This document shows, in pieces, positions 4,701 through 62,734 of a DNA stretch of 64,000 bases. Position 1 is the first letter of the stretch. Each line of letters begins with the position of its first letter. The stretch is from Lunularia cruciata. Lineage: Eukaryota; Streptophyta; Marchantiopsida; Lunulariales; Lunulariaceae. Position numbers and translations under genes: made by a program. The notes beneath the pieces were generated by a model. It saw nothing but the letters and a program-made list of their open reading frames with translations. It was not told the DNA's origin and made no database searches. The stretch is from NCBI GenBank assembly GCA_948567375.1, contig OX419755.1:48130291-48194290 (forward strand), given 5' to 3'.

Positions 4701-6929
4701 CTTGTCTAACACTGGAGGTAGGGATGGAACACGCGGCGGTCGAAGTATGTGTACGTGTTTTGAGGTGATGCGGAGACTTGAGTAAATCAGACAGCGCAGT
4801 CCAAAATTAAGAAACTGTTGTAGATTTTATTCGATGACACAAATGCGAAGAAACTGGTAAACGGTATCAGATTTACAGTAGAGTTTGAATATCCATGAGG
4901 ATGGTATCACAAATTATAGCATGGTGTTGGTAGAAAGGAATTCCCTCTCAACTTTTATCGTCATCGAATTTCTATTTAGCATCAGTGACAAGACTTGATT
5001 GCAGAGATGCCTTTACTGTTCAACCTACACGAAATGAACAATGAGGACTAATGATTTTGAGTTCCTGTTATAAGAAGATAAGTTTCCCAAACCGTAGGAA
5101 AGAATTTGAAGATTGCCACATGTTTGGATGCACCTGCCTGGACGCGTGATGGTTGAAATAGTCTTCGTCCATCACATATTCCTTGGTTCTCCGATTCTTC
5201 TGCTTTTGTGCTCTAGTTGTCTTCATGCAGTGGAGCTGGACAGTGCTTCTTTCCAGTCCCTTATTCTTCTTGAAATCACTGGAGTGGGAAACTGACCACG
5301 TCCACTCTATTGATATACAGCTTCAGAAATTTAGTTACGCTGGATATGTCAGGTGCTTCTGGTGCTGTAGTCGTGGGCTGAACCCGTTCGTTACTTCGTG
5401 TGTGGGTTTCATCTTCTACTACCTAAAGATGTCGTGGTTGTCAAGTCTTTTGACAGATAAGAGAAGTCCGTATTAGCTGGAAGGGCTATCCATTCAGGGG
5501 GAGGGAACCATCAGGTGATTTCTAGTACATTTACCTTACAGTCTGAAATCTTCATTTTCTCTCCGCCCGGACGATTTTGTATTTAGGTTCCCAGAAGTAG
5601 TGGGGTAGAATGATTCACTGGATGTTCTCCAGGGGTAAGCTTTGGAAAGTTTATTTAGCACCGACAGGAAGACAGTTCCTGATGGGGATATACATGTGTG
5701 AGCATGAAATCTTCAGTGTAGCAGATGAGTTAGAACGCATCATGTCTTCCTCTATTGGAGAAATCAGACGGATGGCCGTTAGACTCCAAACAGGGTCGAG
5801 GGTCTTGTGCATGCCTGAGCGAGCCAGTCACATGTCTGGCTGGTTGGCTGTCTGGCGAGTGAAACGGTTCACGCTGAACAGGACGAGAGATCAGAGGAAA
5901 AACTTGGTTGGCCAAGGGAAAAGGCTGTGAGAACGCCATCTGCTGAAACTTCATCTTTCCACTCCGACTGTGCATGTCACCTTTCAGTATTTTCACGTCA
6001 GTATAGTACATGAAGCATGCTTAGACTCCACCTTGATGTTGAGCTTAGAAATCGAATGATAACTTTTCCGTAAAGCAGACTGCATTCTATTCATGTGGAA
6101 GAGACGACAAACTGGATTTGGCTAAAACAAGTCCCCTGAGTCCCTGGTGAGTTGTTGGTACCTTCACGTGTCAATCTGGAAGTGCTAGCAAAGTTTGTTA
6201 GACTTCACAGAGGCTTTCATACAAAGATGTTTACAAAGAACATTTCATAGTTGAAAGCCTCGTCTCCGCTTGCGCTGCAAGAAGACTCTGCAGACGATAT
6301 CGGATCATCACGTGGGCGTTGAACAGCGAGCTAATAGTTTGGTCTGGCTCCAACATTATCATCCGTCTAGGAATCTTGGAGCAGATTTTGCTCAACGATT
6401 AGATACCGCAATGCTATGGAGATGGGTCATCAACGTGCAATTTGTGGAAGGAGGTGCCTAGCTCTGTCAGCAAATACATTGGATATCTCCCTGCCTCTGG
6501 TCTTATATTACAACCCCACTGTCACAATCGCGAAGAGTGGTGCATCCTCACGAGTCAGCAGGAGATTATAATTGAAGCATAATAACTCCTATATATGCTG
6601 TAGATAACTTCATCGGCTTTAAAAGTTCGCCATTACCGGTAGAATTAGATTCAACAGAGGACTATAATGGATAATTTGTCTACAGAATTGACCATTCTAC
6701 CGCATAGGTTTGATCTTATTTACTAAGTTCAGTCATCAGCCATTTCATCTTCTTAAACTCCCGAGGTCTCATGATTATGTAAAGCTTGAACACTTGACAT
6801 ACACTCGATATCCCACATCGTTAAATACTTGCACAATTCCGTTTACTTCTGAATTATCAACAATGGTCAGCAAAGCAACCACTGACTTCTTTTGGTGATA
6901 AATTCACCGTATGAATGCGTATCCCACCT
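1773..6929. other. Intergenic stretch without a recognised gene
   Basis: The first 200 bases are probably TL29 3' UTR and the last few hundred probably PDCT 3' UTR. Between them I see only short ORFs (60-110 codons) that match no family I know and no convincing exon chain. Composition is balanced and CpG is common, as in the genes, so this is not the transposon-type DNA seen after 36 kb. A non-coding transcript or an unrecognised, rapidly evolving gene cannot be excluded. Confidence 0.5.
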
Positions 6930-44659: not shown

Positions 44660-47400
44660 ATCACATGAAGCAGCCATAGAGTATGCTTTGTAGAGTGGAT
44701 CAGGCCAATTGTGCATGGAGAATCTAATGAGTGCTAGAAGCCTCATCAAGCAATGGTTGACCAGATTGTTCAGGAGTTTGTAGATATGTTTTTGGATTAT
44801 TTGCCAAAGAGGTTACCTTCTAAATGTAATATGCACTTCAAGATTGAATTATTGCCAAGAAAGTACTCCAATGAGTAGACCAATCTATTGACTTGCACCA
44901 AAGGAGTTAGAAGAGCTTTGAATAACACTAACTAAGTTTTTGGAGAAGGATTTCATATGACATGATACATCTCCTTGGGGAGCACCGGTACAATTTTTCC
45001 CAAAGAAGGATGGAGGTTTCACTTCTATATTTAATACTATGGTCTCAATAAACAAATTAAGAAGAATGTGTATCCTTTATCTTGAATTGATGACTTGCTA
45101 GAGCACACTACCTCCAAGTTGGAACTTTGAAGCAGCTATTTGTAACAATATGTAGTTTATAGACAAATAAGTCAAGACTAACAAAGTAGCAAATAGGCTA
45201 AATTAGCCTAGAATATTTTAGAAGCATCTAAGAAGCTTCCTAGTACCTTCCAAGTATTTTATCACATGCATGCCAAGTGGTGACTCACATGAGGAAGCTT
45301 CTTGGGAAGTTTCCTAACTAGCTTAGCTTGCACGCCAAGTAAGTGGCTTCTAGAAGGAAGCTTCTTGGGAAGCTTCATAACTAGCTTAGCTTGCACGTCA
45401 AGTAGACAATTTCTAGAAGGAAGTTTCTTTAGAAGCTTTCTAGTTTGCTTGACTTGCACTCCAAGAAATTAGCTTTAAGGAAGCTTCTCAAGAGCCTTGT
45501 ATGTTTCCCTTTAAATACCAAAGCCCAAGCTCATACTAGGCATTTGGAGTTCCCTCATTCAAGTGTTCCAATGTGATTTTCCACTCTGATCTTTCATTCC
45601 CCTATTTCTCTCCTTGACCTTTTATACTATTGGTAGATTCTTATTGAAAGGAAAGATGTGTAGAAGCTTGCATTTCCCACAAGGTATGGATATTTTGAAT
45701 TGATATTTCTACTTTTTGGGTTCATTAATGCTTTAGTGGTCTTCATGGATCAAATGCATTAAGTGTTAGATGGGTTGTTGGATAAGTACATGGTGGTATT
45801 CTTGGATGATATCTCAATCTATGGCAAGATGAAGGAAAAACACATGAATCACATGCAAGAAGTCTTAAGATGATTATGTCAATGGAAGTTTTGGAAGTTT
45901 TACTATAAGAAATCAAAGTGTGTCTTTTGGCAGAAGGAAGTTACCTTCTTGGGTCATAAGGTCTTATTGGAGTGTATTAAAATGAAAGAGGAGAAAATCA
46001 AGGCCATTACTAATTGGTCGACTCCAAAGGATACCACATAAGTGTGGGCATTTAATGGATTGGCAATTTTTTACCAACATTCATCCATTAGTATGCTCAT
46101 GTAGCCATACCTTTGACTGATCTCTTAAGAAAGACCTCAAGCTTTTAGTTGACCACCAAGCACAAAGAATCATTCAAGAAAATGAAGCATATAATGTCTT
46201 CACAACACATCCTTTAACCATATGATCCTCAACCACCTTGTGTACTCGATGATGCTTCTAACTTTACCATTTCAGTTGTGTTGCAACAAGGATTTCCAAA
46301 TGGGTTACATCCCATTGCCTTTGTGTCTTATCATATAAACACCATAAAAGGAATTACTCTACTTGAGATCAAGAGAAACTAGCAGTGATATATGCCACCA
46401 AGGTATGGAGGCATTATTTCTTGGGAAAACAAGTGATCATGTGAACCAATCACAAACCTTTATTATAGACATTACATTTAAAGCACATGAAGAGTCAACA
46501 TCATTGATAGGAGGAACAATTATAAATACTTGACATCAAGCTTGTGTACAAGCTTGGAAAGCTCCACATCATTCATGATGCCCTATAGCAATGACTTGAT
46601 TTGAAGAGTCTTCCTACATCTCCTATCATAGTAACAATTACAAAAGTTTCAATTCACTCAAATGTCTAAATCAAGTTTAGAATTGCTTTATAGCAAGACA
46701 TCTTCTTTCAATTTGTACATGGTTATCTTGTAGCCCATGACAATGAGTACAATGCCTTTCACTCAAAGATGGACTTTTATATTGTGAGAATTGCATCTAT
46801 GTTCCAACTATGGGTGATCTACACTTGGTGCAACTTCAAGAGGTGCATGACTTACCACTTGCAAGACAGATGGAGGTAGACAAGACCTTGAGTACTCTAT
46901 AACAATAATGGTAGTGGACATACAAGGCATATGAAGTCTAAGACTTTGTCTGATCTTGTGAGAGTTGCAAATACAACAAAGCTAGGAACCAAAAACCAGC
47001 TAGACTACTCCAACAATTTCCCCAATCAAGTGGACTACTCTCATCTTCTTGATGGGAACATGGGAACTTAGATCTCATCACATCCTTACCAAGGATGAAC
47101 TTAGGTCATACAACAATCATGGTGTTTATTCATAAACTTAGTAAGAAAATCCATTTAACACCAACCTTTGATATAGTGGATACTCCCACATTGGTCCAGA
47201 TCTACTTCAACAATGTCTTGAAGCATCATAGGATGCCCCATGTCCTCAACTTTGACCATGATCCTTGATTCATTGGTAAATTTTGGCAACCACTCTTCAA
47301 GCTGCATGGTACCAAGTTTGCTTTATCTATGGCCTATCATCCTTAAATTGATTGGCAAACCAAACATGTAAATCTCACCTTGGAGAATATATTTCGTATC
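44660..47400 (+). mobile_element. Decayed Ty3/gypsy retrotransposon, family A copy 2 (5'-truncated)
   Basis: It aligns with copy 1 from its pre-RT region (GTAGAGTGGATCA.GCCAATT at 44690, copy 1 at 38861) through integrase. Gag, primer site and 5' LTR are absent. Reverse transcriptase is split by the solo LTR at 45141-45626 and resumes at 45632, with VVFLDDISIYGKM near 45793-45832. RNase H remnants and integrase (FIGKFWQPLFKLHGTKF at about 47270) follow. Stops differ from copy 1 in part, so the two decayed independently. Confidence 0.85.
45141..45626 (+). mobile_element. Solo LTR of family A inserted in copy 2, with 5-bp target duplication
   Basis: The 486-bp sequence starts TGTAACAA and ends CCTTTTATA. 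It is flanked by CTATT at 45136-45140 and 45627-45631. The uninterrupted paralogue at about 39325-39340 has CTATT once, so the empty site is preserved in the same window. It aligns with the LTR at 36890-37276 but is about 100 bp longer. The difference is explained by a roughly 62-bp unit (GAAGCTTCTTGGGAAG...AGCTTGCACG) present about three times at 45293-45480. Confidence 0.9.
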
Positions 47401-48970: not shown

Positions 48971-49310
48971 ACATACTTTTGAGCGTTGGTGCTCTGGTGT
49001 GCTCTCAGTAGTGAGGTTGGAGTGATGACCAATCAGACTACCTTTGTTTCTCTCCGGTGAAGCAAGAAGTGATGACTTGCAGATCATGAGAGTGCATGTT
49101 GTGATGGTAGGTTATAGGTTACCCTTTCCCCTAATGTAATTATCCTAGTTAGAGTTACATTAGTGAGTGGTGTTTTGTGGGTATTGGCACTTGGTGGTGC
49201 TCAGTTGGTGTTGGTGTTGGCACTTGGTGGAGTACTTGTGGTTTTGATTTGCAGTTGAAGTTTGTGGTTCCGATTTACGGTTGCAATTATGGTTATTTTG
49301 TCAGGATGGA

Positions 49311-49958
49311 TTTCTTTGGGGATTCTAGAGGAGTTAGCAATGCAATACGCAGTGGGTTTACTTGGAGTGATACTTGGTATCAGCTTGTATCTCAGGTCCC
49401 AATGAGGGAGGAGATTGACTCTGAGTTGGAGTTCAATATAGGAGTTGATTAAGTTGAGAGTGCACTTGGCATGTTTGTACCGTTTTTGTGGAACATGGAC
49501 AAGATTTATAGAGCCTCCAAAGGCCCTAAGCGTTACTCTAGTATAATGGGTACCATTGATTTGGATGACTTCATCCAAGAGTTTGATAGTTGGTAAGATA
49601 TGCAACAGATGCGGAAACTTTGTTTACACTCTTCATGGCATGGAAGGGGTTGTTTCAGCATTTAGAGGGTCCGCCAATGGACAACTACCATGAGTTTAGG
49701 AGAGCTCATTTGGAGGAGATTGAGTTATGGAGACAATATTGGTCTCCTAACTATATCTCCATCACTTCAAGCTTGGTTGCCATGAGTAGATTGGCTATAT
49801 CCACGAGTTCTAGCTCAAGTAGTGTTGTTGGAGCTAGTGGAGGTGCACTAGTTGGAGATAGTGCTACCACGAGTGGAGGTACCACGGTAGGAGGTGGTGA
49901 GGTATCGGGGTTTAATCCCATGGTGGAGTTCTTCCAATGTTTGAGGCAGAACTACTAA
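49311..49958 (+). pseudogene. Gag-like remnant of the methyltransferase-bearing gypsy element
   Basis: Two frames separated by a stop and a frameshift: about 49311-49452 (FFGDSRGVSNAIRSGFTW) and 49590-49958 (LEEIELWRQYWSPNY, then a Ser/Gly-rich linker). A further piece at 50038-50170 (NFTQGVTKAQEVEFWYGIL) resembles the end of a gag domain before the zinc knuckle. Assignment rests on position and gag-like character. Confidence 0.55.
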
Positions 49959-50518
49959 GGAGTGCAGACCGACAAGCTGAGGAGCTTGCAGGAGTCAGCG
50001 GAATGCTAGAGAGAGCCTATGTGAGGCATACACTCAAATGAGGCAGCTGATCAATTTCACTCAAGGAGTTACTAAGGCCCAGGAAGTTGAGTTTTGGTAT
50101 GGGATATTGGACAAGGAGTTGCAACATAGAGTTTGTGATGCTACGTTGTTAAGGTTACTTTGCCTACTTTGGAAGTGGTCTTTGGTTTGGCTGAGCGTAT
50201 TGAGCTCAACATGGTGGAGGAGAAGGTGGTGACATTTGGATTTGGTAGGGAGATCTCATCCACATCTGTTACTTCTTCTAGAGTGCACCGGAGTGCACCA
50301 CGCCTTGTTGGATTTTGAGGATAGGTGGACAGCCTAGGTCCTATGGAGTGAGTGGAAAGCCTATTGTAATTAGACCCTTACCTTCATTTTTGGGTCAATA
50401 GTAGCTAGTAAGTAATGGTGTTGCTTGTTGGACTTGAGGTGGACCTCACCATAGGAGAGAGTGTACTCAAGGCAGGGGACCTGATACCTCTAGTGCATTG
50501 CAACCAACATAGAGGCAG

Positions 50519-50560
50519 TGTGAGCATTGCCATAGATTTGGACACACTAGTGACTGATGC
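50519..50560 (+). pseudogene. CCHC zinc knuckle of the gag
   Basis: Translation gives CEHCHRFGHTSD*C, the Cys-X2-Cys-X4-His-X4-Cys nucleic-acid-binding knuckle of retroviral-type gag. A TGA replaces one residue before the last Cys. Confidence 0.75.
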
Positions 50561-51454
50561 TTTGACCTACACCCGGAGTTATGGAGTGGTAGGGCTGCTA
50601 TGGAAAGTAGTAGAGGAGCTCTAATTCATGGAGGACTAGGTGGTAGAGGTGGTGGTAGAGGATCTACACCTATTAGAGATGCGATACTTGCCTTTACTTT
50701 TGATATAGCTACGGCTACTTGGATTGAGCAGTTGGAGCAGAGATTGGCTAGAATGGCCATTGCTTAGGGGAGATCAGATTCAAGTGTTGAGGCTTCCACC
50801 TCATATGCTGATGATAGAGATGTTTTGGCCTTCATGTGTGGAGTAGCACAGGTGGATGCATCTACAGTAGTGATTAGGAGTGTAGTACGTGCTCCAAAGC
50901 CTAGAGGAGCATTAGTGGATTTGGCTCACAAAGAGGAGAGGTTGGGAGATAGGTCAGACTTCCCTAATCTTTCATGCTATCTAAGGCATTGTAGATGACA
51001 TCCATAGCTCCTAGACGTCCCAGTGTAGGTGTGGTAGGTGGTGATGGGGTGCATGATGGACTACCTATTAGTCAACCACCTGCTACTATACAGAGCCTAG
51101 CATGATGTTGGGGGCGGCTCACCTGATTATGCGGTGCCCTTTGTTTCAAGCCAGTGACATGTTTACATTGGAAGTTGACCCAATGTTCCAATTGGTTGCC
51201 ATGCTTTGTGAAAGTAGGGATGATGCGGTTCCTACTGCTAGAGCAAAGGTGGTTGATAGTGGAGGTGACTTGGTTGAGGAGTATGGGATCCGTTCAGCAA
51301 CCACTAGTTTATAGCAGGCAATAGTGGCTAGACTAGAGGAGTTGCTAGCTAGACCGGCCTTTGAGAGAGCACAATTCACACTTGGTGTTGTCTTATTGGA
51401 TAACTAGAGGGGGATTTTCCATTTAGTGGGACTTTCATGGAAGGTCTATACACC

Positions 51455-51848
51455 ATAGAGAATCTTGTTAGACTTTGGTACGCAACTCCTTATGTTGGGG
51501 AAGGTTGTAATAGTCGGTCTGGAGTTATGAAAGACTAATATGGAGAGGTGCCCATTTCAAATCCAGACATCTCTAGGTGGTGGTTCAACACAATACATCA
51601 CACGTGGAGAGCTATTTGTTTAGCTTCAGTCCGGTCATCCAACTAATAGCTCGGTGGTGAGAGCTCAGGCTATTGTGATACTTGAGTCACACAATGTGCT
51701 AGTTGGGAGAGCAGTTTTATACCCTATGGGTTTCAACATTGACTATTGGGAGGAAACAACCTCCTATAGACCAGGTTGGCAGTCTGGTAAGGGATGGGTA
51801 TGTTGCCTACCAGTACACTTCAGTAATGGCAATCTTGGCTCACTATAG
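51455..51848 (+). pseudogene. Retropepsin-like aspartic protease remnant
   Basis: RILLDFGTQLLMLGK contains the protease active-site region, with DFG at 51471 where an active enzyme has D(S/T)G. It continues in frame through PFQIQTSLGGGS and VLVGRAVLYPMGFNIDYW, with stops at GLEL* and LFV*. It lies between the zinc knuckle and the methyltransferase, as expected for gypsy order up to that point. Confidence 0.7.
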
Positions 51849-52201
51849 TCCAAGACCATGGCAGCATCAGTTTTAGCTTTTAATGGTGCAGTTACTTAGC
51901 TTGGTGACTTGTTGGAGGGGAACATCCATGTAGAGTACCAAAGGAGATCAACACTCCAGTACCAAAGGAGATCACTCAGATTTAGAGTACAAGTGGGATT
52001 GTTCCATCCACCTTGGATGTTTCATTATGGAGTTCAAAGGAGACATTGTAACAGCATGTAGATTAGTTGGTGCAATAGGCTTGCAGTGGAGCCTTTGTAC
52101 CATCAAGAGATGAGTGTGAAGATGAGCCTCTAGAGTCAATTACTTTAACACCTCTAGATACCACACTCATTGCATGGCAGTATCCAGTAGAGAGGATATG
52201 A

Positions 52202-53135
52202 TTAGAGTTGTTTGGTGGGATTAGCATCAAACTAGTTGCGGTATTACAGGCGGGTATACAAGTATAGAGGTACTTGTATGTGGAGAGAGACTAGACTACT
52301 AGGTGAGTCTCTCTACATCATGAGGCACACTTGGCCTACCGGTATCTTAAGTTATTACTAATATAAGCAATCAAAGGTTACTAGAAGGCCCTACCAACAA
52401 ACTTTTCCTTACTAGGAGCGCATGATCTGGAAAGACATGGGCCTATTCACTTGGTGATTTTTGGATGGCCATGTCAGAGACATACATGTGTAAGCCAAGG
52501 TTTGGGTCTTCAAGATCCTCATTTTGGTGTGTTTTGGGAGATGTTATGGATACTACGACATCTCTAGGTTCATCAGTTCATTTCTCCAGCTTACATTTTG
52601 GACAACATTCTTTTGATGGATGATTCTCATACTGAGTGGTCCATTCTTGGATGGAACCTACTATATTGTTAGATGTAGCTAGAGTAAAATCATGGGCTAA
52701 TTATCTTTGTCTTTGGTGGACAAACCTCTTACCCAAAGAGGTTTTACAATGTGCTTATAATGGGATTCAACGACTTGACCACATCCTTGTTGATGATATC
52801 TTGGATGTTGGGCGTTAGTCTCAAACGGTGGTAGTGGCTGATAGGTCACCTATTATAGTGGTGAACCTAGTTGGATAGCCTAGAGCCACATTTCCCACAC
52901 TCATGAGTTTCTTAGGCTCTCATGCTTTGTGAGAGGGCTGACCTAGACTGGTTTGGGATTCACAATTAAAGCAGTTGGTGGAGCCCAACGCTAATGAGAG
53001 AGAGCAAGCAATGGGTTTTTGCACCGGTATTCTTGCTATTTTAGTAATGTTAGAGGCATCCAAGCGTCAAGTGTTAGGTCCCGCTATGGACCTAAAGTGT
53101 TTGACCTGGATTATGAGCCTTGGCTTGGTAAAGCA
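52202..53135 (+). pseudogene. C5 cytosine DNA methyltransferase domain inside a gypsy polyprotein
   Basis: From 52202 one frame stays in register for more than 130 codons, broken only by stops (four TAG, one TAA, one TGA). Motif I is ELFGGIS at 52205-52225, followed by LVAVLQAGIQV. The next strand, YLYVERD (52271-52291), supplies the AdoMet-binding acidic residues. Motif IV, GWPCQ, lies at 52463-52477 with the catalytic Cys codon at 52472-52474. After one frameshift the protein continues as WANYLCLWWTNLLP (about 52696-52737), where C5 enzymes carry the Tyr/Arg-rich region before target recognition. PRATFPTLMSFLGSHAL and EPNANEREQAMGF follow, and then RQVLGPAMDLKCLTWI, the C-terminal motif X block. 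These are the ordered motifs of a C5 methyltransferase of roughly 300 residues, closest in feel to DNMT3/DRM-type enzymes. Host genes of this class are not retroelement components, so capture is inferred. This copy cannot be active. Confidence 0.82.
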
Positions 53136-53499
53136 GCATAGGATGCACTTGATAGATATCACCACTCTGACACTTGTGAGCTCTATGCCTATCAAGATGA
53201 TTCAATCATATGTTGGGAGTGATGGACTGAGTGGACATGGTATTCTTGAGATACAACCAGTAGCTACTAGGGAGAGTGGTCTACTTGGAGTCCATCTAGG
53301 TGAGTGTGGGCTACTTGGACTACACCCTTGGTCCACTTGGGGATGCAGCTAGAGGACATGTGGAGCTTGTAGCTAGAGTGGAGGGAGTTTTTCACACAAA
53401 GGTTGGGACCTCTAGTGGTCGGAGGCATGACACTACTGCTCCCAAGGGCCCAGTGTAGTAGCCAGTCAGTACGTCTTCCGCTCTTGCGATAGTTACAAA

Positions 53500-54025
53500 A
53501 GATACTTGGGAGCTAGATCTTGGACCCAAGCTTATTGGAGAGGAAAGACTGAGAGTTTGGAGGTTCTTGAGGAGCTACACAAGTTGTTTTGCCTTCCGTG
53601 TGACAGATTTAGGTGCTTTAAAAGGACCTGGCATACAGAGTGAGCTGACTAGAGATACACTAGTTTTCCAACATCCTTATTGCTATACTGGCATGGAGAG
53701 GACATTGATTTAGAGCCAGAGTATAGACCTTTTTGAGGCTAGTTTGGTGGAGATCTCACATAGAGAGTATGCATCAACTATAGGGATGTCTGCCAAGAAG
53801 GATATGCATGGCAACTACACAAATAGGCAGATGTGTGGAGATTACCATCCTATCAACAGACTGACCAGGGCTGATCGGTATGCCATGCTTACATCAAAGG
53901 AGATTTTTGATGCATTGGGTATGCAAAGGTCTTTAGTACTTTGGATCTTTGGTGGGATATCATCAGTTGCCGATCAGAGAGGAGGAAAAATCCAAGACAA
54001 CATTCTAGGCTATTGATCCTCATGA
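53500..54025 (+). pseudogene. Reverse transcriptase, N-terminal part
   Basis: Reads CFAFRVTDLGALKGPG, then an intact frame from 53744 with AKKDMHGNYTNRQMCGDYHP and RADRYAMLTSKEIFDALG, the fingers and palm of a Ty3/gypsy reverse transcriptase. After a frameshift the frame reaches KTTF*AIDPHD near 54025 and stops where the insertion begins. Confidence 0.85.
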
Positions 54026-55933
54026 TGCTGTAGGGATTGTAAGCTTTTGAGAGTGCACTAAGCACTTGGCTGCTTGCTCTTAGGCTGTTTACTTTGTCCA
54101 TGATTTGAGAGTTTTTTATGCTAGCTCTATGTTTTGGACTTGATGACAACAACCCTGGTCAATTTGTCTTTGGTTGGTCCTAGGTGTAGACATTTCTCAA
54201 TGGCTATATGGGTTGGCTTCTCAAGTTATTGTTGTCCTTCATGTGTTATTAGCTATTATTCTTGGTCTATTATTTGTGGTTTTAATATTGTCCAAATTGG
54301 TGGGTTTGCAAAACTAGTCTAGTTTGGGCTTACAAAACTGGCCTGATTTGTGTGGCCAGCTCAGGTTGGTGCAACCGGATCAGCCATTTGATCCAAATTG
54401 CATAAGTTGGTCTAGAAGATTTGACAGTGGAGTTCCCTTGTTTTCCCTAACACTCTTCTTGGAATTTAATGGGCGGATTCAATCACTTAAGACAACACAA
54501 CATTCATCACAATGACAAGTCTTGCAATTTATAAACACCCTTTTGAAAACTCAAATTGTTTCAAAGCACACAATGACCACCTCAAAGTTTCTACGAGTGC
54601 TCAAGCAGTAAAACAAGTACCAAGCAAAGCAAAACTCTGAGCAACTTTGCAACACAAACTTCTTGTTCCCCAAACCACTACTCAAAGAAGTCTCCTACAC
54701 TAGCAATCCCATCTGGCTCTTGATGGTTTCACCTCTATCCTTGTCAACAGCCAACTTCAAGCTTCTCTATATCTATTTGGTGCTAATTTGGCTATAAACT
54801 CCTCTCTTCCTTTGTCTCTGTTCAATGCGAACTCAACTACAAAACTCCTATCTTCCTTTGTCTCTATTTAGTGCAAACTCAACTCCAAACTCCTCTCTTC
54901 CTCTTATCACAACCAAGGTCTAAGCTCTGTTATAGTCAAGATCTAAGCTCATCTCTGTCCAATCACGTTCACGATTTCACTTAAAGAATTTCTTAGTAGT
55001 ACTTTCCCTCTATTCAGTCCAGATCATGACAACTTCAAAATCCTTCTCTTCCTCTACCTCTGCTCAAGTCAGACCACTCCAAAATTTTCTGTCCAGACCT
55101 TCCTCTCTAGGGTTTCCCTATCTAGACCCTCAACTTTGGGAAATTCCTCTCTGGCTCTCTTTAGCCGAGCAAATTCAACTTCAAAGTATCTCCTCTACCT
55201 TTGCTTATGCACTGCCAGATCACTTTGATAGTTTCAGCTGCTCTCTCTTTGTCTGATCTAGTCTTTCCTCCTTCAAATCTCTCTCTTCTCTGCCTAGTCC
55301 AGACCTTACTTTGACTGAAATTTCCTCCCAAGTTTTTTCTCTTGCCCAATTCCTTCCATGCCTTCTTCTAATGATTTCTCCCTAGTCCCGTCACAGTCAA
55401 AGTGAAATCTCTTGAAGCACTCTCTCACTCTTTGGCCTTGTCACAGTCAAGCTAAAATCTTTTGAAGAACTCCCTCCCTCTTCCTCCTATCACAAAATTA
55501 CAAAACCTTTTCAAAGAATTCCCATCTCATTTGCCAAGCCTCTTCCAGTCCTAGTTTCTCTCGAAAGTCCCCTCACTCTATCCATGCAGAAGCCCATCTC
55601 TTGAAATTTCTCTTTCCCTTTTTCTGTCACTATCCCAACAACCTCAAAGCTAACCTTCTTCTTCCTTGTCAAAGCACACTTGATTCCCTATCTTCATGTC
55701 TCTTCCTTGCATAGGCCTATATTCTTCCTTTGATTCCTCTCATACTCTCTCTCGTCATAGCAAAGCCTTTCCTTAGAAATTTTGATCTTCCGACCTTCCT
55801 GCTCAGTCCAAACTTTCCCCTCAAAGGTTCCCCTGTCTAGACTAAGCTTCTTTGATGCTTCTTCTTTCTCTATGTCCTTTAGCCTGCACAGCCCTAATGC
55901 CATTTGAGATTCTCATTTCTTGTCAACTAGCCC

Positions 55934-56276
55934 TTCACTTTGAAAACCTTCTTTCTTCTTCCTGTCATAGTCCTCCGAAGCTCACTATCCTCCAAATCCT
56001 CATCTCTCTTGATCTTTCTTCTCCTCTATCCAGTGCAAAACCCTATCCTCTTGAACCTCCTTCCTTCTTGTCACTTCCTTGGCATTGGTTCTCTAGCTCA
56101 TGCACACCTGGTTGAGAGGAGAGGATATTCAAAAATATCCTCTCCTCTCAACCAGCACCTTCACTTTGAAATTGCATTCTTTCTTCTTCTTGTCATAGTC
56201 CTCTAGAGCTCACTATCCTCCAAACCCTCATCTCTCTTGATCTCTCTTCTCCTCTATCCAGTGCAAAACCATGTCT
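55934..56276 (+). repeat. About 110-bp repeat, two copies 235 bp apart
   Basis: The segment CACTTTGAAA...CTGTCATAGTCCTC...GCTCACTATCCTCCAAA.CC...CTATCCAGTGCAAAACC occurs at 55934-56042 and again at 56160-56268 with few differences. The perfect hairpin at 56108-56155 lies between the copies. Confidence 0.8.
56108..56155. repeat. Perfect 22-bp inverted repeat with 4-nt loop
   Basis: The 22 bases at 56108-56129 (CTGGTTGAGAGGAGAGGATA then TT) are followed after CAAA by their exact reverse complement at 56134-56155. One arm is purine-rich in otherwise pyrimidine-rich DNA, so it arose as a local inverted duplication. Confidence 0.92.
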
Positions 56277-56280
56277 TCTC

Positions 56281-56284
<4 letters not shown>

Positions 56285-56347
<63 letters not shown>
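56285..56347. repeat. (CT)n microsatellite
   Basis: About 63 bases of uninterrupted CT dinucleotides, the longest perfect simple repeat in the window. Confidence 0.97.
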
Positions 56348-56349
<2 letters not shown>

Positions 56350-56376
56350 TGTGTCACATCCTTCACATGCCCTTCC

Positions 56377-56545
56377 CAAACCCCTCTTTCTCTCAAAGGT
56401 TTCTTTCCTTGCACAACCTCATCTCCTTTGATAATTTCTTCTATCCCTCTATGTTCCTATCCAAACCCCTCTTTCTCTCAAAGGTTTCTTTCCTTGCACA
56501 ACCTCATCTCCTTTGATAATTTCTTCTGTCCCTCTATGTTCCTTT
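56377..56545 (+). repeat. 85-bp tandem duplication
   Basis: CCAAACCCCTCTTTCTCTCAAAGG through CTTCT.TCCCTCTATGTTCCT occurs twice head to tail (from 56377 and 56461) almost identically. A more diverged copy lies at about 56936-57006. Confidence 0.85.
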
Positions 56546-57720
56546 AGTATCTCCTTCAAGAAAATCTCCCTTGCCAACCATGTCCCAAATCCCTCTCTTT
56601 TTGCTCCTATCACACTCTACTCTTAAAACCCTTACACAAGCCAACCCTCCCTTTGATTGTTCTCCCCTACTACACTTCACTCTCAAAAATCCCTCTATAG
56701 GCCAGTCCTCAAAGCATAAACATCATTCTCCTGTTCAAGCCTCCTCTCATAATCCAAAATCTCTTCCCTATTCAGACAAGATCAGGCCTTCACTCCAAGC
56801 ATAAGACATCATTCTCCTTCTTGTTTAGACCAGATCAGCCTTCCCTTGAGTTTGCTTCCCCACCAGTTCAAAAACCCTCTCATTCAATTCTTGTCCCTCT
56901 GTCCAAGCAGCCCCCACATGCCTCTTCTCATCTTCCTCTTTCTCTCAAAGGTTCCTTCTCCTGCACATGCTCATCTCCTTCAATAATATTTTTTGTCCCT
57001 CTATTTTCCCCAAAACTCCTCCCTATCCTCCATTGTCCAACCTAAACCTCCCGTTCTTGTCCTTCTCCTTCCCTTATCTCCCTAGCCTTTCTTTCTTTCC
57101 AACATGCCTTTTTCCATGTTTTTTGTTCACTTTCTTCTTGAAGCCCAAAAATGCTCTTTTCCTCTTTCCACGTGCACTTCCTTTGGGAATTTTCCCTACC
57201 AACCCTTCTATCCTACCTTGCTCCTTCAAAAAAAAAACTCCTTCTATTTCTACCAAGCCTCTTCCACTTATTTCCTCAAAAAATTCCCCTTTGCAGTAGG
57301 CCCTCATCCTTTAAATCCTAAACCCTCTTTTCTCACAATTTTCTTCAGATTTTTCCTTGAAGACCCCAAACTTCTCCTGTTCAGCCTTCAGCTCATGTAA
57401 CACATAAACTCTCAAGTTTTTGAACATCCCAAAGAACTCTTGAGCTTATGTCACATAAGAGAAACATTTGAGCTTTTGCACCATAAGAGAAACACCTTGA
57501 GCTTATGTAACACTCAAAACTCTCCCAAGCTTATGTAACACTCAAAATAAGTCCCGAGTTTACAGCAGCACAAAACAACCTCCAACTTAGCAATGACATA
57601 AACAATACTCCCTAGATGCAATAACATAAAATGCCAAGTCATTGTAACATAAGAAGAAAAAAAATTCTCTCACACCAAATGGCACCAATGTTACGTGTGG
57701 ATTATTTTACTGACAACAAT

Positions 57721-58080
57721 GGCAAGGATGTGTCATATCAATAGAGGTTCTTATCGTTTGGGTTAAAGAACGTTCTTGCCAAGTTCCAAAGGGTCATGGA
57801 CAGGATCCTAGCAGGATTGGATTTTTCTTGGTGCTATATTGATGACATTTTGGTCTATAGCACTATTGTGGAGGAGCATGAGAGACAATTGTTGGAGGTG
57901 TTTGAGAGGTTGAGATCTCATGGACTCAAATTACATCTTGGGAAGTGTATGTTCTTCCATGAGTAGGTTGAGTGTTTGGGTCACACTATCTATCCTGGAG
58001 GACTTGGTGTTCAGCAGACCAAGGTGGAAGCTATTGCACGTATTCCTTGGCCTACGGATGTGAGCAGAGTGAGAGCATTC
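57721..58080 (+). pseudogene. Reverse transcriptase, C-terminal part
   Basis: In one frame it reads GKDVSYQ*RFLSFGLKNVLA, FQRVMDRILAGLDFSWC, then the catalytic YIDD at 57835-57846 and ILVYS, followed by HGLKLHLGKCMFF and VECLGHTIYPGGLGV. It continues the fragment that ends near 54025 and has two in-frame TAG stops. Confidence 0.88.
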
Positions 58081-58081
58081 C

Positions 58082-58620
58082 TTGGGGTTGGAAAACTTCT
58101 ATCACCACTATGTTAGAGGATTTAGTACCATTTCCAAGGCCTTGACAAAGCTGACCGAGCTTACACAAGAGTGGTGTTGGGGAGATGAGCAGGAGAGAGC
58201 TTTTGTAGAGCTCAAAGAGAGGTTGATATCTGCTACTATTTTGAGGAGACCGATCAGAGGACGGCCATTTCAGGTTCATATTGATTGGAATATGTTGGGG
58301 CTTGGAGCAATTCTTACCCAACATGATGAAGAGAAGGAGTTTTTGGTGGCCTATGCTAGTCACTCCAACAATTTTGTGGAGGCAAAGTATAGTTCATATG
58401 AGGGAGAGTGCTTGGCAACAGTTTGGGCAATAGCACATTTCCGATGTTACCTATTTGGTAACCCCTTCACTCTCATCACTAATCATCAGCCACTGAAGTA
58501 GTTGATGGAGTCCAACAAGCTTTCATTGAAGCTTGCATGATGGGCTTTGATTTTACAGGAGTATGATTTCACAATTTTTTATAGACCTAGAGTGGTGAAC
58601 CATGATGCAGATGGGTTGAG
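58082..58620 (+). pseudogene. RNase H domain of the gypsy polyprotein
   Basis: A 140-codon open frame (58082-58501) reads LTELTQEWCWGDEQERAF, FQVHIDWNMLGLGAILTQ, YSSYEGECLATVWAIAHF and FTLITNHQPLK, the Ty3/gypsy RNase H with tether. After a TAG it continues from 58547 as LQEYDFTIFYRP and NHDADGLSRNP, the standard end of the domain. It is shifted by one frame from the reverse transcriptase upstream. Confidence 0.88.
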
Positions 58621-58626
58621 TAGAAA

Positions 58627-58703
58627 CCCAAGAACTCTGTACCTGATTAGTCATTTTGGTGCACCAGTTGAGGTTTTGACTGATCAGGTACAGAGTTCTT
58701 GGG
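58627..58703. repeat. 27-bp inverted repeat at the RNase H/integrase deletion junction
   Basis: The 27 bases at 58627-58653 (CCCAAGAACTCTGTACCTGA then TTAGTCA) have their reverse complement, with one mismatch, at 58677-58703. The loop is 23 nt. The right arm encodes integrase sequence (LTDQ region), so the left arm is probably an inverted copy made during rearrangement. Confidence 0.9.
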
Positions 58704-58905
58704 GGATTTTTAGGTCTTGTGTGACAAGGCTTTGATTGATCATCGTACTACATCTCGAGATCACCCTGAGGCAAATGGCTTAGTAGAGAGAGTGGTTCAG
58801 ATGGTGAAGAGAGAATTACAAAAGTATGGTTTGCAGAGAGGCCACTTGGGAGATTGGGATCTCAAATTACCTTGGTTGGCCATGGGCTATTGGTTTAGCC
58901 AATGT
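58655..58905 (+). pseudogene. Integrase fragment
   Basis: HFGAPVEVLTDQ carries a catalytic Asp. After a frameshift, DKALIDHRTTSRDHPEANGL and VERVVQMVKRELQKYG carry the catalytic Glu region, and GHLGDWDLKLPWLAMGYWFS follows. The H2C2 zinc-binding part and the first catalytic Asp are missing, since RNase H is joined directly to mid-integrase by a deletion. Confidence 0.82.
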
Positions 58906-59090
58906 TGTCAAGACAATAACCGATGTGTACTATTGATGTCATTTGGTGTGAAAGTTTTGTTTTCTTGCGTTGCAATGACTTTGGGTTTTTTTTTGGTTAT
59001 TGTGTCTCATGAATATTCTTCATGCCATTGTGAAGTTGGAAGTTTTGTTAATATGTGTGCGCTTGAAAGCTCTTGATGATACATAAACTC

Positions 59091-61537
59091 ATGAGTATCT
59101 ATTAGTTTGCATGAAAATAGGAGTTTTTTTGGAGTTTCACATTTGGGGGCTTAGACTTGTTACAAGGACTCTAGACTTTGTTTATTGTCCAAATAAATTT
59201 CAAAGAGGATTTCCAAAGCTGAAGATAGTAGACTTGGTCTAGCAGTCTATATTGGTAGAGCATCTTATTCCTGGCTTTGATGATAATGTAAGAAGGGTGA
59301 AGTCAAGTGCTCGTCAACTTTTCCCAAAATGTGAGAAGGCTATACTCCTGAAGGGGAAGGTCTGGACTGGAATGGAGAATTCTGAAAGATGGAAGGATAG
59401 GAAGATGTTGAGGAGAGAGTTTGAGTTGGAAGGGCAGAGGATCAAGAAGGAAGTTTGAATGATAAACAAGGATCAAAGAGGTTTTTGAGAAGAACAAGAG
59501 TGACAAATACCAAAGGGGAAAAATCAGAGGTCTTAGGGGTGACAACTATCAAAGGAGGGTTTCTGAGTGACAATAAATATTGATCAAAGGGGTTTTGTAT
59601 CCAATAGACAGAGCTTCCTAGACTTTTCATCATCATCATTAACGGTGAGCAGCCTCTTAGCAGTCCAAGAGTGAGTGAGAACGAGAGGAAGCCTTGGAAG
59701 GGCAACACCCATATAGTGAGGAGATAGTCAAGAGAGTATGCGCATTTGGAAAGATTGAAAGTTGTTTCTATTCTCACAGTTGGAGATTAATCAAAGAGAG
59801 CACCTGGAGCTTTGAAGTTGCACATAAGCAGCTGCAGCAAGCATTGGCCATTGTCCTTACGTTGCAAACTTAAGATTTCATGAGCAAGAAGTTTTTGTGT
59901 ATGGTTTTTAGCTGTCAAGTGTTCTTATCATATAGAGGAGATACATGTTGGAGAATAGTAGAAAGGTGAGCTGCAAAATCCAACATGAAGATTTATGGAC
60001 AATTGGGATGGACTCATGGTGATTATGCAATCATATTGTTTGCTTAGGTTCAAAGTTGAAATCCCAGCTAACTTTGTGCTCCTACTATTCTATAGCGGAG
60101 TTGGAACATTGAGAAGGACGAGGTGGAATTTTCTTGCAAATATAAGCATTATGGTATCTTATATGCGGTAGAGTTCAATTTAGTTTTCCATTTCTGGTGG
60201 CATTAGAGCTCATGTTAAACACTATGAAAGTGATCATCTCAGTGTAGAGCCTCTCATCTTCTATGATATTCTAGGATAAGTTTGGTTTAAAGTGTGCACA
60301 AGATTCACATTATTCTCTGCCCAAGCAAAAGGTCCATCATTGGACATTGGCTTTGACAAGACTTATTTAGGATCCAAACACGGGCAGCTTGCATTACCCA
60401 AAGCCTGGCACTTATGCTTAGCACCTAAAGGCCGGAAACTGTTGTGTTTACAATTCAAGTTACTGGTAAAGGCATCTCAACCTTTGGGAAAGATCATGAA
60501 TTGCTCATTGTTGATGACAGCCGCTATGATCACCATGTTTAGATGATAGTCGCTCAAGCCAAGAAGTGTGATCAGAAACTTCATCTTAGAGAACAGTACC
60601 TCTACACACCGATAGGATTGAAAGGTGTGAACAATGAGGAATATTGTGAGGAGAGAGTCCTGGCAAATATAGAGAATTCTCAAAGGAATTTCTGGTAGGA
60701 TAGAGGGTCTGGCAGGTAGTGATGTATCAAGAGGTTTGGGGGTGTTGACAAGACAAGGGAAGATAGAATTGTGAAAGAGTTTTCTTTAGAATAGTGAAGT
60801 ATCAAAGAAGGATTTGGCCAAGATTGTGAAATCTTGAAGGGGTTTGGCAGAAATCCAAAGAAGTCTCAAAAGGGTGTGATAGGGAAACATAAACAGGAAA
60901 GGATCAAAGGTAGAAACCAATTCAGCCTAGGTGCAAGCAGCTAGATGCAAATCAAGGATGTTATGTAAACCCCACCAGACCAGACCAGTCCAGTGCTACA
61001 AATCCACCAAGCCAACCATACTACAACCAAGAACGATAGCTAATAGCACATGAAGGACAGCAATAATCCTAGAAGCCAACCCAAATAGCCAATGACAAGG
61101 GTCGTCACCTAAGAATGCTTTTCAGTCACTCACAAAGAAGAAAGCCTAAGCGCAAGCAACCAGGTGCTCGATGCATTCTCAAGAGCTTACAATCCCTGCA
61201 ACACCGCCAAGCCTCCTTAGCATCCTTTCTCCTTCCTACTCTATGGATGAGATCCAGATTTACTTCTAGCTATTTTTCAAGATGCTATTGTAGTTTTGGA
61301 CTTGGATGATCTAGATATATGGATGAGCACATGTTCTCAACGGGTAGAGATCTTTTGGAGAGTGATGTTGATGGCCTTTGAGAACTTGTGATTGCTCAAC
61401 ATAGAGATACCTTATGCTATGCTACCATTTGAGTAGGAGGTTAAAGACCCTCAATCCACCAATTTCATCCATGGGACTATGTATATCTATGGCAAATAAC
61501 ACCAACAACACTTGATGTTTCAACAAGTTGCACTATC
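59091..61537. other. Retroelement-derived DNA without recognised domains
   Basis: 59280-59560 and 60640-60900 are purine-rich on the plus strand and resemble the reverse complement of the C+T-rich insertion at 54.5-57.4 kb in composition and words (GGTCTGGACTGG, AGGATAGG). They may belong to an inverted relative. ORFs here have no recognisable family. Confidence 0.4.
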
Positions 61538-61837
61538 TTGAGAGTGGGTGAGGTTTTGCCATCTATAGTCCTTGTGTTAGAAGGATGTGATGGTGTTGTT
61601 TTGAAGGACCATGTGCACAATTGTGCACCATGCCACCTCCCAAACATTGATAGTACTATGGACCCAAGCTTGGTGCTTGTACGTGCAGGCTTGAGGTGTA
61701 TGTTATGTGGCTCTTCTGGTGGAGCTGCTTCTATGTTAGTGTGTGATAGTTGTTCAAGAGGATGGCATATGGCATGTATGATTCTTTCCTTCATGGTGGT
61801 TCCTCAAGGACAATGTTTATATCCTAGATGTACTTGA
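61538..61837 (+). pseudogene. PHD-finger ORF, probable retroelement fragment
   Basis: An open frame of 99 codons. The C-terminal half reads as a PHD zinc finger, C4HC3: Cys54-X2-Cys57, Cys69-X2-Cys72, His77-X2-Cys80, with the motif LVCDSCSRGWHMAC typical of PHD domains, then a final Cys98 in YPRC. The seventh ligand is Tyr95 and the usual Trp two residues before it is Cys93, so the finger is damaged. The N-terminal half has a short NCAPCHLPNID segment. PHD fingers usually read histone H3 tails. Its place in CpG-poor retroelement DNA suggests a domain carried by a transposon, perhaps of the same lineage as the methyltransferase-bearing element. No flanking polyprotein is readable, so that link is inference. 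Confidence 0.6.
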
Positions 61838-62002
61838 CCTATAGCTAGTTCATTCTTTATATGGTATAGACTGCAAACATGCGACTAATGATGGGGCTCC
61901 ATAGCACCCGACCTTCTGATCTTTGCCCATCATATGGTATACCATATACTTGGAGTGGATGGCTATCTAGAGTAAGAGGGACCTAACTGCTAGCTAGGGG
62001 GC

Positions 62003-62676
62003 AATTGTGGTACTTTAGAGTCTATGTATGACTTATGTGTGAGTTGTGCTTCCATAGTGTATGATGTTGACAATGATGTATGTTGTGTAGTAATGTATAT
62101 ACGCATGATAGTTTTCACACCATTTATAGTGTCACATCTAGATTTCTCAGAGACTAGAGTTGCAATGATAGTAGTTAGAGGTATTTGAGCAGTTTCCCAT
62201 AGACTACTTTCTAACGGTCAAATTTCATAAGAATTACAAATTTTTTATTTAGGGTACTAACTTCACGGTGGGGCCCATCATCACTTTGCACCATTTGCAC
62301 CATCAAGTGTGCCATCAGTGGGACCATTAGGGTTTCATAATTAGCTTGAGTCTAGGGGTATACTTTCAAAGTGCAACTTTAGAGAGCTCACTTCTTTGAT
62401 GTTGAGCTTTTGAGTTCCTGGCTATGGTGGACAGAGGCCGGCAATTATCACCTGGATTCTCTTAGCTAGAGTGGGTGTGGCTTGACTGTAATCAATACCT
62501 AGTTTTTGGTAGTTTATAGAGAAAAAAATTAAGAACTGATCTGAGTTGAGTTTATTTGAGAGTTGTCAACAATCTAATTATTGTGGCACTTTAGAGTCTA
62601 TGTATGACTTATGTAAGAATTGTGCTTCTATAGTGTATGATGTTGACAGCAATGTATGTTGTGTAGCGATGTATGT
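62003..62676 (+). repeat. About 98-bp direct repeat, copies 576 bp apart
   Basis: ATTGTGG.ACTTTAGAGTC through GTATGATGTTGACA..AATGTATGTTGTGTAG occurs at 62003-62100 and 62579-62676 with few changes. The spacing could reflect short terminal repeats of a small element or a segmental duplication. Confidence 0.75.
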
Positions 62677-62734
62677 AGGCACAGCACAAACCAAGGGGAG
62701 GTAAGGATAGCCTTTCCTCCATTGGGAGGGAGAT

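What the first reader, a model, noticed from the sequence alone, without database searches (positions are those of the whole stretch)
52202..53135. Ty3/gypsy retrotransposon carrying a cytosine-5 DNA methyltransferase between protease and reverse transcriptase
Seen: ELFGGIS, VERD and GWPCQ stay in one reading frame for about 90 codons with only substitution-type stops. After one frameshift, WWTNL, EREQAMGF and LGPAMDLKCLTWI follow in a second continuous frame. Upstream are gag, CCHC knuckle and protease; downstream is a gypsy reverse transcriptase. Known: these are ordered motifs of C5 cytosine methyltransferases, with the PCQ Cys catalytic. From memory, de Mendoza and colleagues (2018) reported retrotransposons that acquired cytosine methyltransferases in a charophyte alga and dinoflagellates. 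A land-plant element with the gene embedded in pol would extend that. Inference: the element may once have methylated its own or host DNA, for example to shape silencing or target choice.
Basis: partly seen in the sequence, partly recalled or inferred. Interest (0 to 1): 0.9.

Follow-up and report, generated by a model that had tools for sequence, protein, structure and literature searches.

The report
Jumping gene carrying DNA-methylating enzyme
This is a worn-out copy of an abundant plant retrotransposon that carries its own DNMT3-like DNA-methylating enzyme; relatives in liverworts, peat moss and green algae suggest an old lineage of such elements that may methylate its own DNA copies.

Summary
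Window 52184-53142 is a decayed C5 cytosine methyltransferase (MT) between a retropepsin and a Ty3-type RT: its two frames score 171 and 229 bits against an MT profile without window sequence; the best of 1,560 control frames scores 1.5. Pfam misses the decayed pieces.

The host genome holds many young copies; 20 of 20 chosen by RT alone carry MT sequence at the expected place. Relatives occur in Marchantia, Riccia, Calypogeia, Sphagnum, Closterium and environmental contigs.

Best reading: the MT is made with Gag, packaged, and methylates the element's own DNA. Identity is shown; that function is inferred. Closest known: KnitGypsy-Dnmt3 of Klebsormidium (PMC5890265). My searches found no land-plant report.

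The parts
48975..62682 (+). Remnant of the Ty3-type element (pieces 48975-54022, 57721-58630, 58647-58900, 61204-62682); the 5' repeat A1 and part of the leader are not found
   Evidence: blastn of L016 against the window, 85.9-93.7% identity per piece
49178..50126 (+). Decayed gag part of ORF1
   Evidence: mapped from L016 1586-2512, 920 of 927 bases; Pfam gag only hinted at in L011 (E 0.07, below cut-off)
50519..50560 (+). CCHC zinc knuckle
   Evidence: mapped from L016 CEHCHRFGHTSDRC
51465..51749 (+). Decayed retropepsin-like protease (active-site stretch 51471-51485)
   Evidence: mapped from L016; Asp_protease_2 in relative L002 at 7.8e-4, below its cut-off
52184..53142 (+). Decayed C5 cytosine methyltransferase, DNMT3-type fold; motif I 52205-52225, IV 52463-52477, VI 52595-52612, VIII 52696-52725, IX 52996-53016, X 53074-53094 (motif numbers are my reading)
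   Evidence: mapped; profile scores 171 and 229 bits in two frames
53456..53464 (+). Place of the in-frame stop and its context; reads TAG TAG CCA here, TAG CAR YYA in 24 of 24 G000 loci and in L002
53633..54022 (+). First part of reverse transcriptase
54023..57720 (.). Insertion interrupting the RT, not identified
   Evidence: gap between L016 pieces
57721..58114 (+). Second part of reverse transcriptase
58115..58627 (+). RNase H
58647..61256 (+). Integrase remnants (58647-58900 and 61204-61256), partly deleted and interrupted by 58901-61203
   Evidence: 305 of 672 bases mapped
61691..61834 (+). PHD finger at the end of ORF2
   Evidence: 144 of 144 bases mapped; Pfam PHD 2.2e-10 in L016
61995..62003 (+). 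Polypurine tract
62004..62110 (+). Repeat B1
   Evidence: 90.7% identity to B
62113..62580 (+). Repeat A2
   Evidence: 79.4% identity to A
62581..62682 (+). Repeat B2, right end of the element
   Evidence: 92.2% identity to B

Best explanation
The window holds a dead copy of a large Ty3-type retrotransposon family whose Gag-protease polyprotein carries a DNMT3-type C5 cytosine methyltransferase. Shown by sequence: Gag-CCHC-PR-MT is one open frame in the best copies; a single UAG in CARYYA context follows; RT-RNase H-integrase-PHD continues in the same frame; the repeats are split (A1...B1-A2-B2) with TGTC...GACA ends and 4-bp target duplications. Inferred: most ribosomes stop at the UAG, so the MT is made at Gag level and RT-IN-PHD at a lower level by readthrough. 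The MT is packaged and methylates cytosines of the element's new DNA before or at integration, so that new insertions arrive already marked, escaping recognition as foreign or limiting their own harm. The PHD finger helps choose the chromatin for insertion. The DNA passes through a form in which the B and A ends are joined (GACA-GC-TGTC), and the DDE integrase cuts there.
Against: No activity, readthrough or packaging was tested. The Klebsormidium enzyme showed no activity in yeast, which its authors call inconclusive. In type B relatives the MT lies inside pol (RT-RH-MT-IN), and in Closterium P0045 no stop separates MT and RT, so Gag-level dosage is not general. Pairwise MT dN/dS is 0.46 in G000 copies, and 9 of 20 copies have stops or an indel in the MT. 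The C>T decay of the window copy can be due to host methylation alone.
Confidence: 0.55

Rival explanations
1. Same element, but the MT acts on host DNA or on chromatin around the insertion site rather than on element DNA, for example to shape target choice or silence competitors.
For: A PHD finger rides on the integrase ORF, with CHD4 (7.7e-12) and KDM5B (9.3e-11) PHD fingers as matches among solved structures; an enzyme made with Gag could act outside the particle.
Against: No test here; no nuclear-targeting evidence was sought.
Confidence: 0.15
2. The MT is kept for another role: RNA methylation, nucleic-acid binding or a structural part of the particle, without DNA methylation.
For: de Mendoza et al. 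raise RNA methylation for the LINE-borne DNMT, and KnitGypsy-Dnmt3 showed no activity in yeast.
Against: The catalytic Cys is invariant in the 9 diverse sequences, and the fold is nearest to the DNA enzymes DNMT3A/B. In 10 of 11 intact G000 MTs the stretch GWPCQGH is unchanged; the eleventh keeps PCQ.
Confidence: 0.15
3. Two or more separate captures of MTs by Ty3 elements gave types A, B and C, instead of one capture followed by moves within the polyprotein.
For: Different places of the MT; the positions of Closterium and type C are unresolved in both trees; sampling was by MT only.
Against: All 20 MT carriers lie on one side of a 100/98 branch in the RT-RNase H tree; retro MTs lie together against host DNMT3, DRM and a phage enzyme (98/97); PHD is found in types A and B, and below cut-off in C.
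Confidence: 0.35
4. The MT at 52184-53142 is a chance insertion of a host gene piece into one element.
For: The window copy alone is broken and nested.
Against: 20 of 20 RT-chosen copies have MT sequence there; host DNMT3 and DRM are distinct; in 11 of 20 fetched copies motifs I, IV, VI and X share one open frame.
Confidence: 0.01

Closest known systems
KnitGypsy-Dnmt3 of Klebsormidium nitens (de Mendoza et al. 2018, PMC5890265; abstract, sections 9, 10, 11 and search passages read)
   Same: LTR Gypsy-type domains with an unrearranged Dnmt3-type MT; repeats described as those of a DIRS element; purifying selection on the MT.
   Different: There the MT is said to be in the Pol polyprotein ORF; here it ends the Gag-PR frame before a UAG. 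Main-text word searches found no mention of PHD, readthrough or protease. Its sequences were not at hand, so kinship was not tested.
SymbioDIRS-Dnmt3 and SymbioLINE-Dnmt of dinoflagellates (same paper)
   Same: A retrotransposon carrying a DNMT; the DIRS type has A/B split repeats.
   Different: Tyrosine recombinase (DIRS) or LINE machinery, not a DDE integrase; the paper calls their origin independent.
DNMT3-embedding retrotransposons mentioned in PMC12344493 (2025; passages only)
   Same: States that some DNMT3s are embedded in 'LTR Copia and DIRS' elements, as reported in streptophytes and dinoflagellates.
   Different: The passages seen name no land-plant element, leaky stop or PHD finger.
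DIRS/PAT/Ngaro elements (split direct repeats; recalled)
   Same: A1-internal-B1-A2-B2 plan.
   Different: DDE integrase and 4-bp target duplications here.
Tobamovirus-type stop-codon readthrough UAG-CARYYA (recalled)
   Same: Exact context in 24 of 24 G000 loci and in L002.
   Different: In a retrotransposon, between MT and RT.

Membership tests
Ty3/gypsy retrotransposon | RT, RNase H, then DDE integrase in this order | tested here: met
   L016 ORF2: RVT_1 3.3e-31, RT_RNaseH 4.1e-35, Integrase_H2C2 2.6e-18, rve 1.2e-12; nearest solved chain is Ty3 Gag-Pol, 2.4e-93
Ty3/gypsy retrotransposon | Two plain long terminal repeats | tested here: not met
   A1 at the 5' end, B1-A2-B2 at the 3' end in the fetched copies
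KnitGypsy-Dnmt3 | Unrearranged Dnmt3-type MT in a Gypsy-type element | tested here: met
   motif order I-IV-VI-VIII-IX-X; DNMT3 fold
KnitGypsy-Dnmt3 | DIRS-like repeat structure | tested here: met
   against the legend
KnitGypsy-Dnmt3 | MT within the Pol ORF | tested here: not met
   MT ends the Gag-PR frame before UAG; type B relatives do have it in pol
KnitGypsy-Dnmt3 | Purifying selection on the MT | tested here: met
   shared variants, ratio 0.30, p 0.002; small numbers, typed neutral proportion 0.755
KnitGypsy-Dnmt3 | Common ancestry with the K. nitens elements | not testable with these tools
   no K. nitens sequence was retrieved under that name
DNMT3 methyltransferases | DNMT3 catalytic fold | tested here: met
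DNMT3 methyltransferases | Descent from eukaryotic DNMT3 rather than from a bacterial or phage enzyme | tested here: inconclusive
   hhalign E 5.5e-13 for host DNMT3 exon, 9.3e-15 for a phage enzyme, 1.3e-9 for host DRM; tree does not place the donor
DRM methyltransferases | Rearranged motif order (VI-X before I-V; recalled) | tested here: not met
   order I to X in the copies; the host's own DRM (L004) shows the rearranged order
DIRS/PAT/Ngaro | Tyrosine recombinase | tested here: not met
   Pfam finds rve and no tyrosine recombinase in L016 and L002 ORF2
DIRS/PAT/Ngaro | No target-site duplication | tested here: not met
   4-bp duplications in 7 of 8 copies with both ends read
Chromoviruses | Chromodomain at the integrase end | tested here: not met
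   Pfam gives a PHD finger and no chromodomain in L016 and L002
UAG-CARYYA readthrough | UAG followed by CAR YYA | tested here: met
   24 of 24 G000 loci L007-L030 (L016 was the query) and L002
UAG-CARYYA readthrough | Readthrough product is made | not testable with these tools
   needs a reporter assay

The most novel reading that the evidence does not exclude
One old clade of Ty3-type elements across streptophytes (Closterium, peat moss, liverworts and unnamed environmental hosts) has carried a de novo C5 methyltransferase and a PHD finger for much of streptophyte history, moving the MT within the polyprotein. In the land-plant branch the MT is made at Gag level before a leaky UAG and methylates particle DNA, and the DNA integrates through a joined-ends intermediate cut by a DDE integrase: a retrotransposon that writes its own epigenetic state.
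Probability: 0.35. Interest if true: 0.88.

Novelty: new variant of a known kind. Interest (0 to 1): 0.76.

Why it matters
Cytosine methylation is a main weapon of plants against transposons; here an abundant transposon carries the same kind of enzyme. Relatives annotated in Marchantia, a laboratory plant, make the question of why transposons take up DNA methyltransferases testable. The split repeats with a DDE integrase, and the enzyme placed before a leaky stop, are further testable oddities. Some Marchantia and Sphagnum entries that UniRef names DNA (cytosine-5)-methyltransferase appear to be transposon copies (P0007; P0069 and P0094), which matters when host methyltransferases are counted.

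Tried and rejected
Pfam and NCBIfam on the decayed pieces gave nothing useful. Plasmid records gave no match. Rfam and tRNA scans of the window found nothing. A PF02008 search did not complete and was dropped. Considered and rejected: the MT is a DRM (motif order), a stray host exon (20 of 20 RT-chosen copies have it), or part of a chromovirus (no chromodomain). I considered that A2-B2 is an ordinary 3' LTR; rejected because B does not follow A1. Whether the MT came from eukaryotic DNMT3 or from a bacterial or phage enzyme could not be settled; with P0001 (N-terminal half) the best solved matches, DNMT3A 9.9e-7 and a DRM 1.9e-6, are nearly tied. In VIA-align only chains already ranked by Foldseek could appear, so families not listed are not excluded. 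An RT tree with fewer outgroup rows gave type A only 68/59. The dN/dS script failed on the MT domain and was rewritten; the tree script failed in its display and was rerun. Paper searches on DNMT-carrying retroelements; on PHD fingers 52; on split repeats 80; on the readthrough context 111; on a liverwort genome 58. Opened beyond PMC5890265: passages only of PMC8616336, PMC10952607, PMC12344493, PMC9861306 and PMC11244446. The other papers were seen as listings only. Most subscription journals are not held.

Full report
OBSERVATION. The decayed pieces alone do not reach Pfam and only brush NCBIfam dcm (E 0.09). A protein search with the N-terminal half gave 4 proteins (E up to 10 allowed), E 6.4e-44 to 5.5e-33, 56-59% identical. 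Pfam gives these PF00145 at 1.2e-9, 0.12, 1.4e-4 and 1.1e-5, 2 of 4 over the curated cut-off. An HMM built from 38 homologous proteins, none of them the window, scores two frames of 52202-53135 at 171 and 229 bits; the best of 1,560 control frames scores 1.5.

THE GENOME. The window lies in a 566-Mb genome. PF00145 gave 123 scored matches, all over the cut-off, among 2,161 first-look candidates, with open frames up to 1,428 aa. Of the eight loci cut out, four were host-type by my reading: L003 (DNMT3), L004 (rearranged DRM), L005 (CMT-like exon), L006 (second DNMT3-like exon); four (L007-L010) are elements. A DNA search with 300 bases of RT gave 2,028 first-look candidates, 40 scored; 29 of 40 are identical over all 300 bases. 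The family is thus young and may number about two thousand copies, but only scored ones are confirmed. That the host is a bryophyte, probably a liverwort, is inferred from the nearest relatives and from its having both DNMT3 and DRM.

ANATOMY. I fetched 20 copies chosen for long open frames. All 20 have an open frame of 200 aa or more with motif IV; 11 of 20 have motifs I, IV, VI and X in one frame, 7 of them with the CCHC as well; 3 of 20 (L011, L015, L016) have RT, RNase H, integrase and PHD motifs in one frame. Pfam: L011 ORF1 PF00145 1.9e-7; L016 ORF2 RVT_1 3.3e-31, RT_RNaseH 4.1e-35, Integrase_H2C2 2.6e-18, rve 1.2e-12, PHD 2.2e-10; the gag family is only hinted at (0.07) and the protease is below cut-off in L002. 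ORF1 and ORF2 are in the same frame, parted by one stop. The junction query (from L016) matched 24 G000 loci, L007-L030 including L016: in 24 of 24 TAG is followed by CAGCCA, CAGCTA or CAGTCA, which fits CARYYA; L002 has TAG CAATCA, which also fits; the window has TAG TAG CCA. This is the tobamovirus-type readthrough context (recalled). The copies are near identical, so the independent weight lies in the variants within YYA and in L002. In Closterium P0045 the frame runs from MT to RT without a stop.

REPEATS. Self-comparison shows A (about 450 bp) at the 5' end and B (about 107 bp)-A-B at the 3' end. A at the 5' side is found in 18 of 20 loci (75 bp only in L012), and B1-A2-B2 in 18 of 20, with B2 cut by the locus end in L015 and L026; L019 and L028 show one B each. 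The ends are TGTC and GACA. Where both ends lie in the locus, 7 of 8 have a 4-bp duplication (L012, L013, L022, L024, L025, L027, L030); L023 has none clear. The B1|A2 join reads GACA-GC-TGTC, and a polypurine tract lies directly before B1. L002, a contig with identical 127-base ends, has the same 16 bases CACGACAGCTGTCACG, although its non-coding stretch shares no 12-mer with the family's A, B, leader or 3' UTR taken apart. My inference: a two-repeat circle or tandem with unit B-A, opened at an internal B|A join, gives exactly A-internal-B-A-B. De Mendoza et al. say that the repeats of KnitGypsy-Dnmt3 are those of a DIRS element while the domains are Gypsy.

IS THE MT A FIXED PART? The 20 copies above were chosen by MT. 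So I fetched the expected MT place of 20 copies chosen by RT alone (20 of the 29 identical hits). All 20 have MT sequence there: 18 over 596-600 bases, L041 over 352, and L044 in two pieces with an internal loss.

SELECTION AND DECAY. The MT is free of stops and indels in 11 of 20 copies. Variants shared by two or more copies are 13 nonsynonymous and 14 synonymous (per-site ratio 0.30; binomial p 0.002 against a typed neutral share of 0.755), singletons 49 and 18 (0.88; p 0.37); Fisher p 0.02. RT behaves alike (0.23 and 0.62, 8 copies). Pairwise MT dN/dS is 0.46. The numbers are small, and related copies are not independent. At 4,833 sites where five young copies agree, the window copy differs at 555; 382 are C>T or G>A, hitting 88 of 251 CG, 161 of 527 CHG and 133 of 1,712 CHH sites, the pattern expected of methylated, silenced DNA. 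A1-A2 identity ranges from 89.9 to 99.8% in 9 copies. L015 lies in the MT gene, and L022 in the A repeat, of another copy, by my reading of their flanks.

RELATIVES. L011 ORF1 (MT region) found 44 proteins; only the 7,992 candidates sharing most words were scored. An MT alignment found 300, of which 120 are listed. Named hosts: Marchantia polymorpha (15, 59-72% identical) and M. paleacea, Riccia sorocarpa, Calypogeia fissa, Sphagnum fallax and troendelagicum, Closterium NIES-53 and NIES-54. P0052 and L002 are filed under bacterial MAGs, which I take for contamination. Layouts: A, PR-MT before RT (land plants, L002, Closterium); B, RT-RH-MT-IN-PHD (environmental); C, MT-RT-RH-IN (P0048); P0040 could not be assigned. 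PHD by Pfam: type B 2e-10 and 2.2e-13; type C 0.0023, below cut-off; none in Closterium P0045, which ends in RNase H.

TREES. MT tree of 75 rows: B one clade (97/98); A without Closterium one clade (95/85), with G000 in a 100/100 clade holding the Marchantia rows and Calypogeia; 34 rows have no layout, and Closterium and type C are long and unplaced. RT-RNase H tree of 26 rows: 20 MT carriers are split by a 100/98 branch from 6 rows taken as MT-free: Ty3 and five from this genome, three of these near identical, whose upstream regions I did not read. Sampling was by MT and the root is unknown, so one capture is favoured, not proved. In a tree of motifs I-IV retro MTs lie apart from host DNMT3, DRM and a phage enzyme (98/97); the donor is open.

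MECHANISM. Shown: order, stop context, repeat plan, duplications, conservation. Inferred: readthrough, packaging, methylation of element DNA, insertion choice by PHD, joined-ends intermediate. Two SymbioDIRS DNMTs methylate CG in yeast; the Klebsormidium one did not, which the authors call inconclusive; they suggest methylation of cDNA for DIRS elements. The window copy itself is broken.

COMPARISON AND NOVELTY. The nearest known element is KnitGypsy-Dnmt3. Beyond the text I read, new here are: a probable land-plant host with very many copies, a clade over several streptophyte hosts, the MT in the Gag-PR frame before a leaky-type stop, the PHD finger, and 4-bp duplications measured with split repeats. 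A 2025 paper mentions DNMT3s in 'LTR Copia and DIRS' elements of streptophytes, citing the 2018 report (passages). Six searches on DNMT-carrying retroelements showed no land-plant report. I file it as a new variant of a known kind.

Noticed in passing
G000:C1:48270096-48270446 (locus L004), about 76 kb beyond the window's end: A host DRM-type methyltransferase with rearranged motif order, the nearest host C5 methyltransferase seen; not part of an element by my reading.
   Followed up: partly
window 54023-57720 and 58901-61203: Two unidentified insertions break the element; the first is CT-rich, with a CT microsatellite near 56290-56350.
   Followed up: no
window 45706-46077: Remnant of another Gypsy-type RT, 32% identical to L016 ORF2.
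   Followed up: no
L002 (CADCWO010000201.1): A contig filed under a cyanobacterial MAG carries a complete-looking Gag-PR-MT and RT-RH-IN-PHD element and has identical 127-base ends; probably a contaminant.
   Followed up: yes
P0027 and P0043, C-terminal ends (protein records): After the PHD finger these type B proteins have a long extra region with a DPW...SPP/SPH-like look that suggested to me a second methyltransferase-like domain; Pfam at E up to 0.01 found none there.
   Followed up: partly
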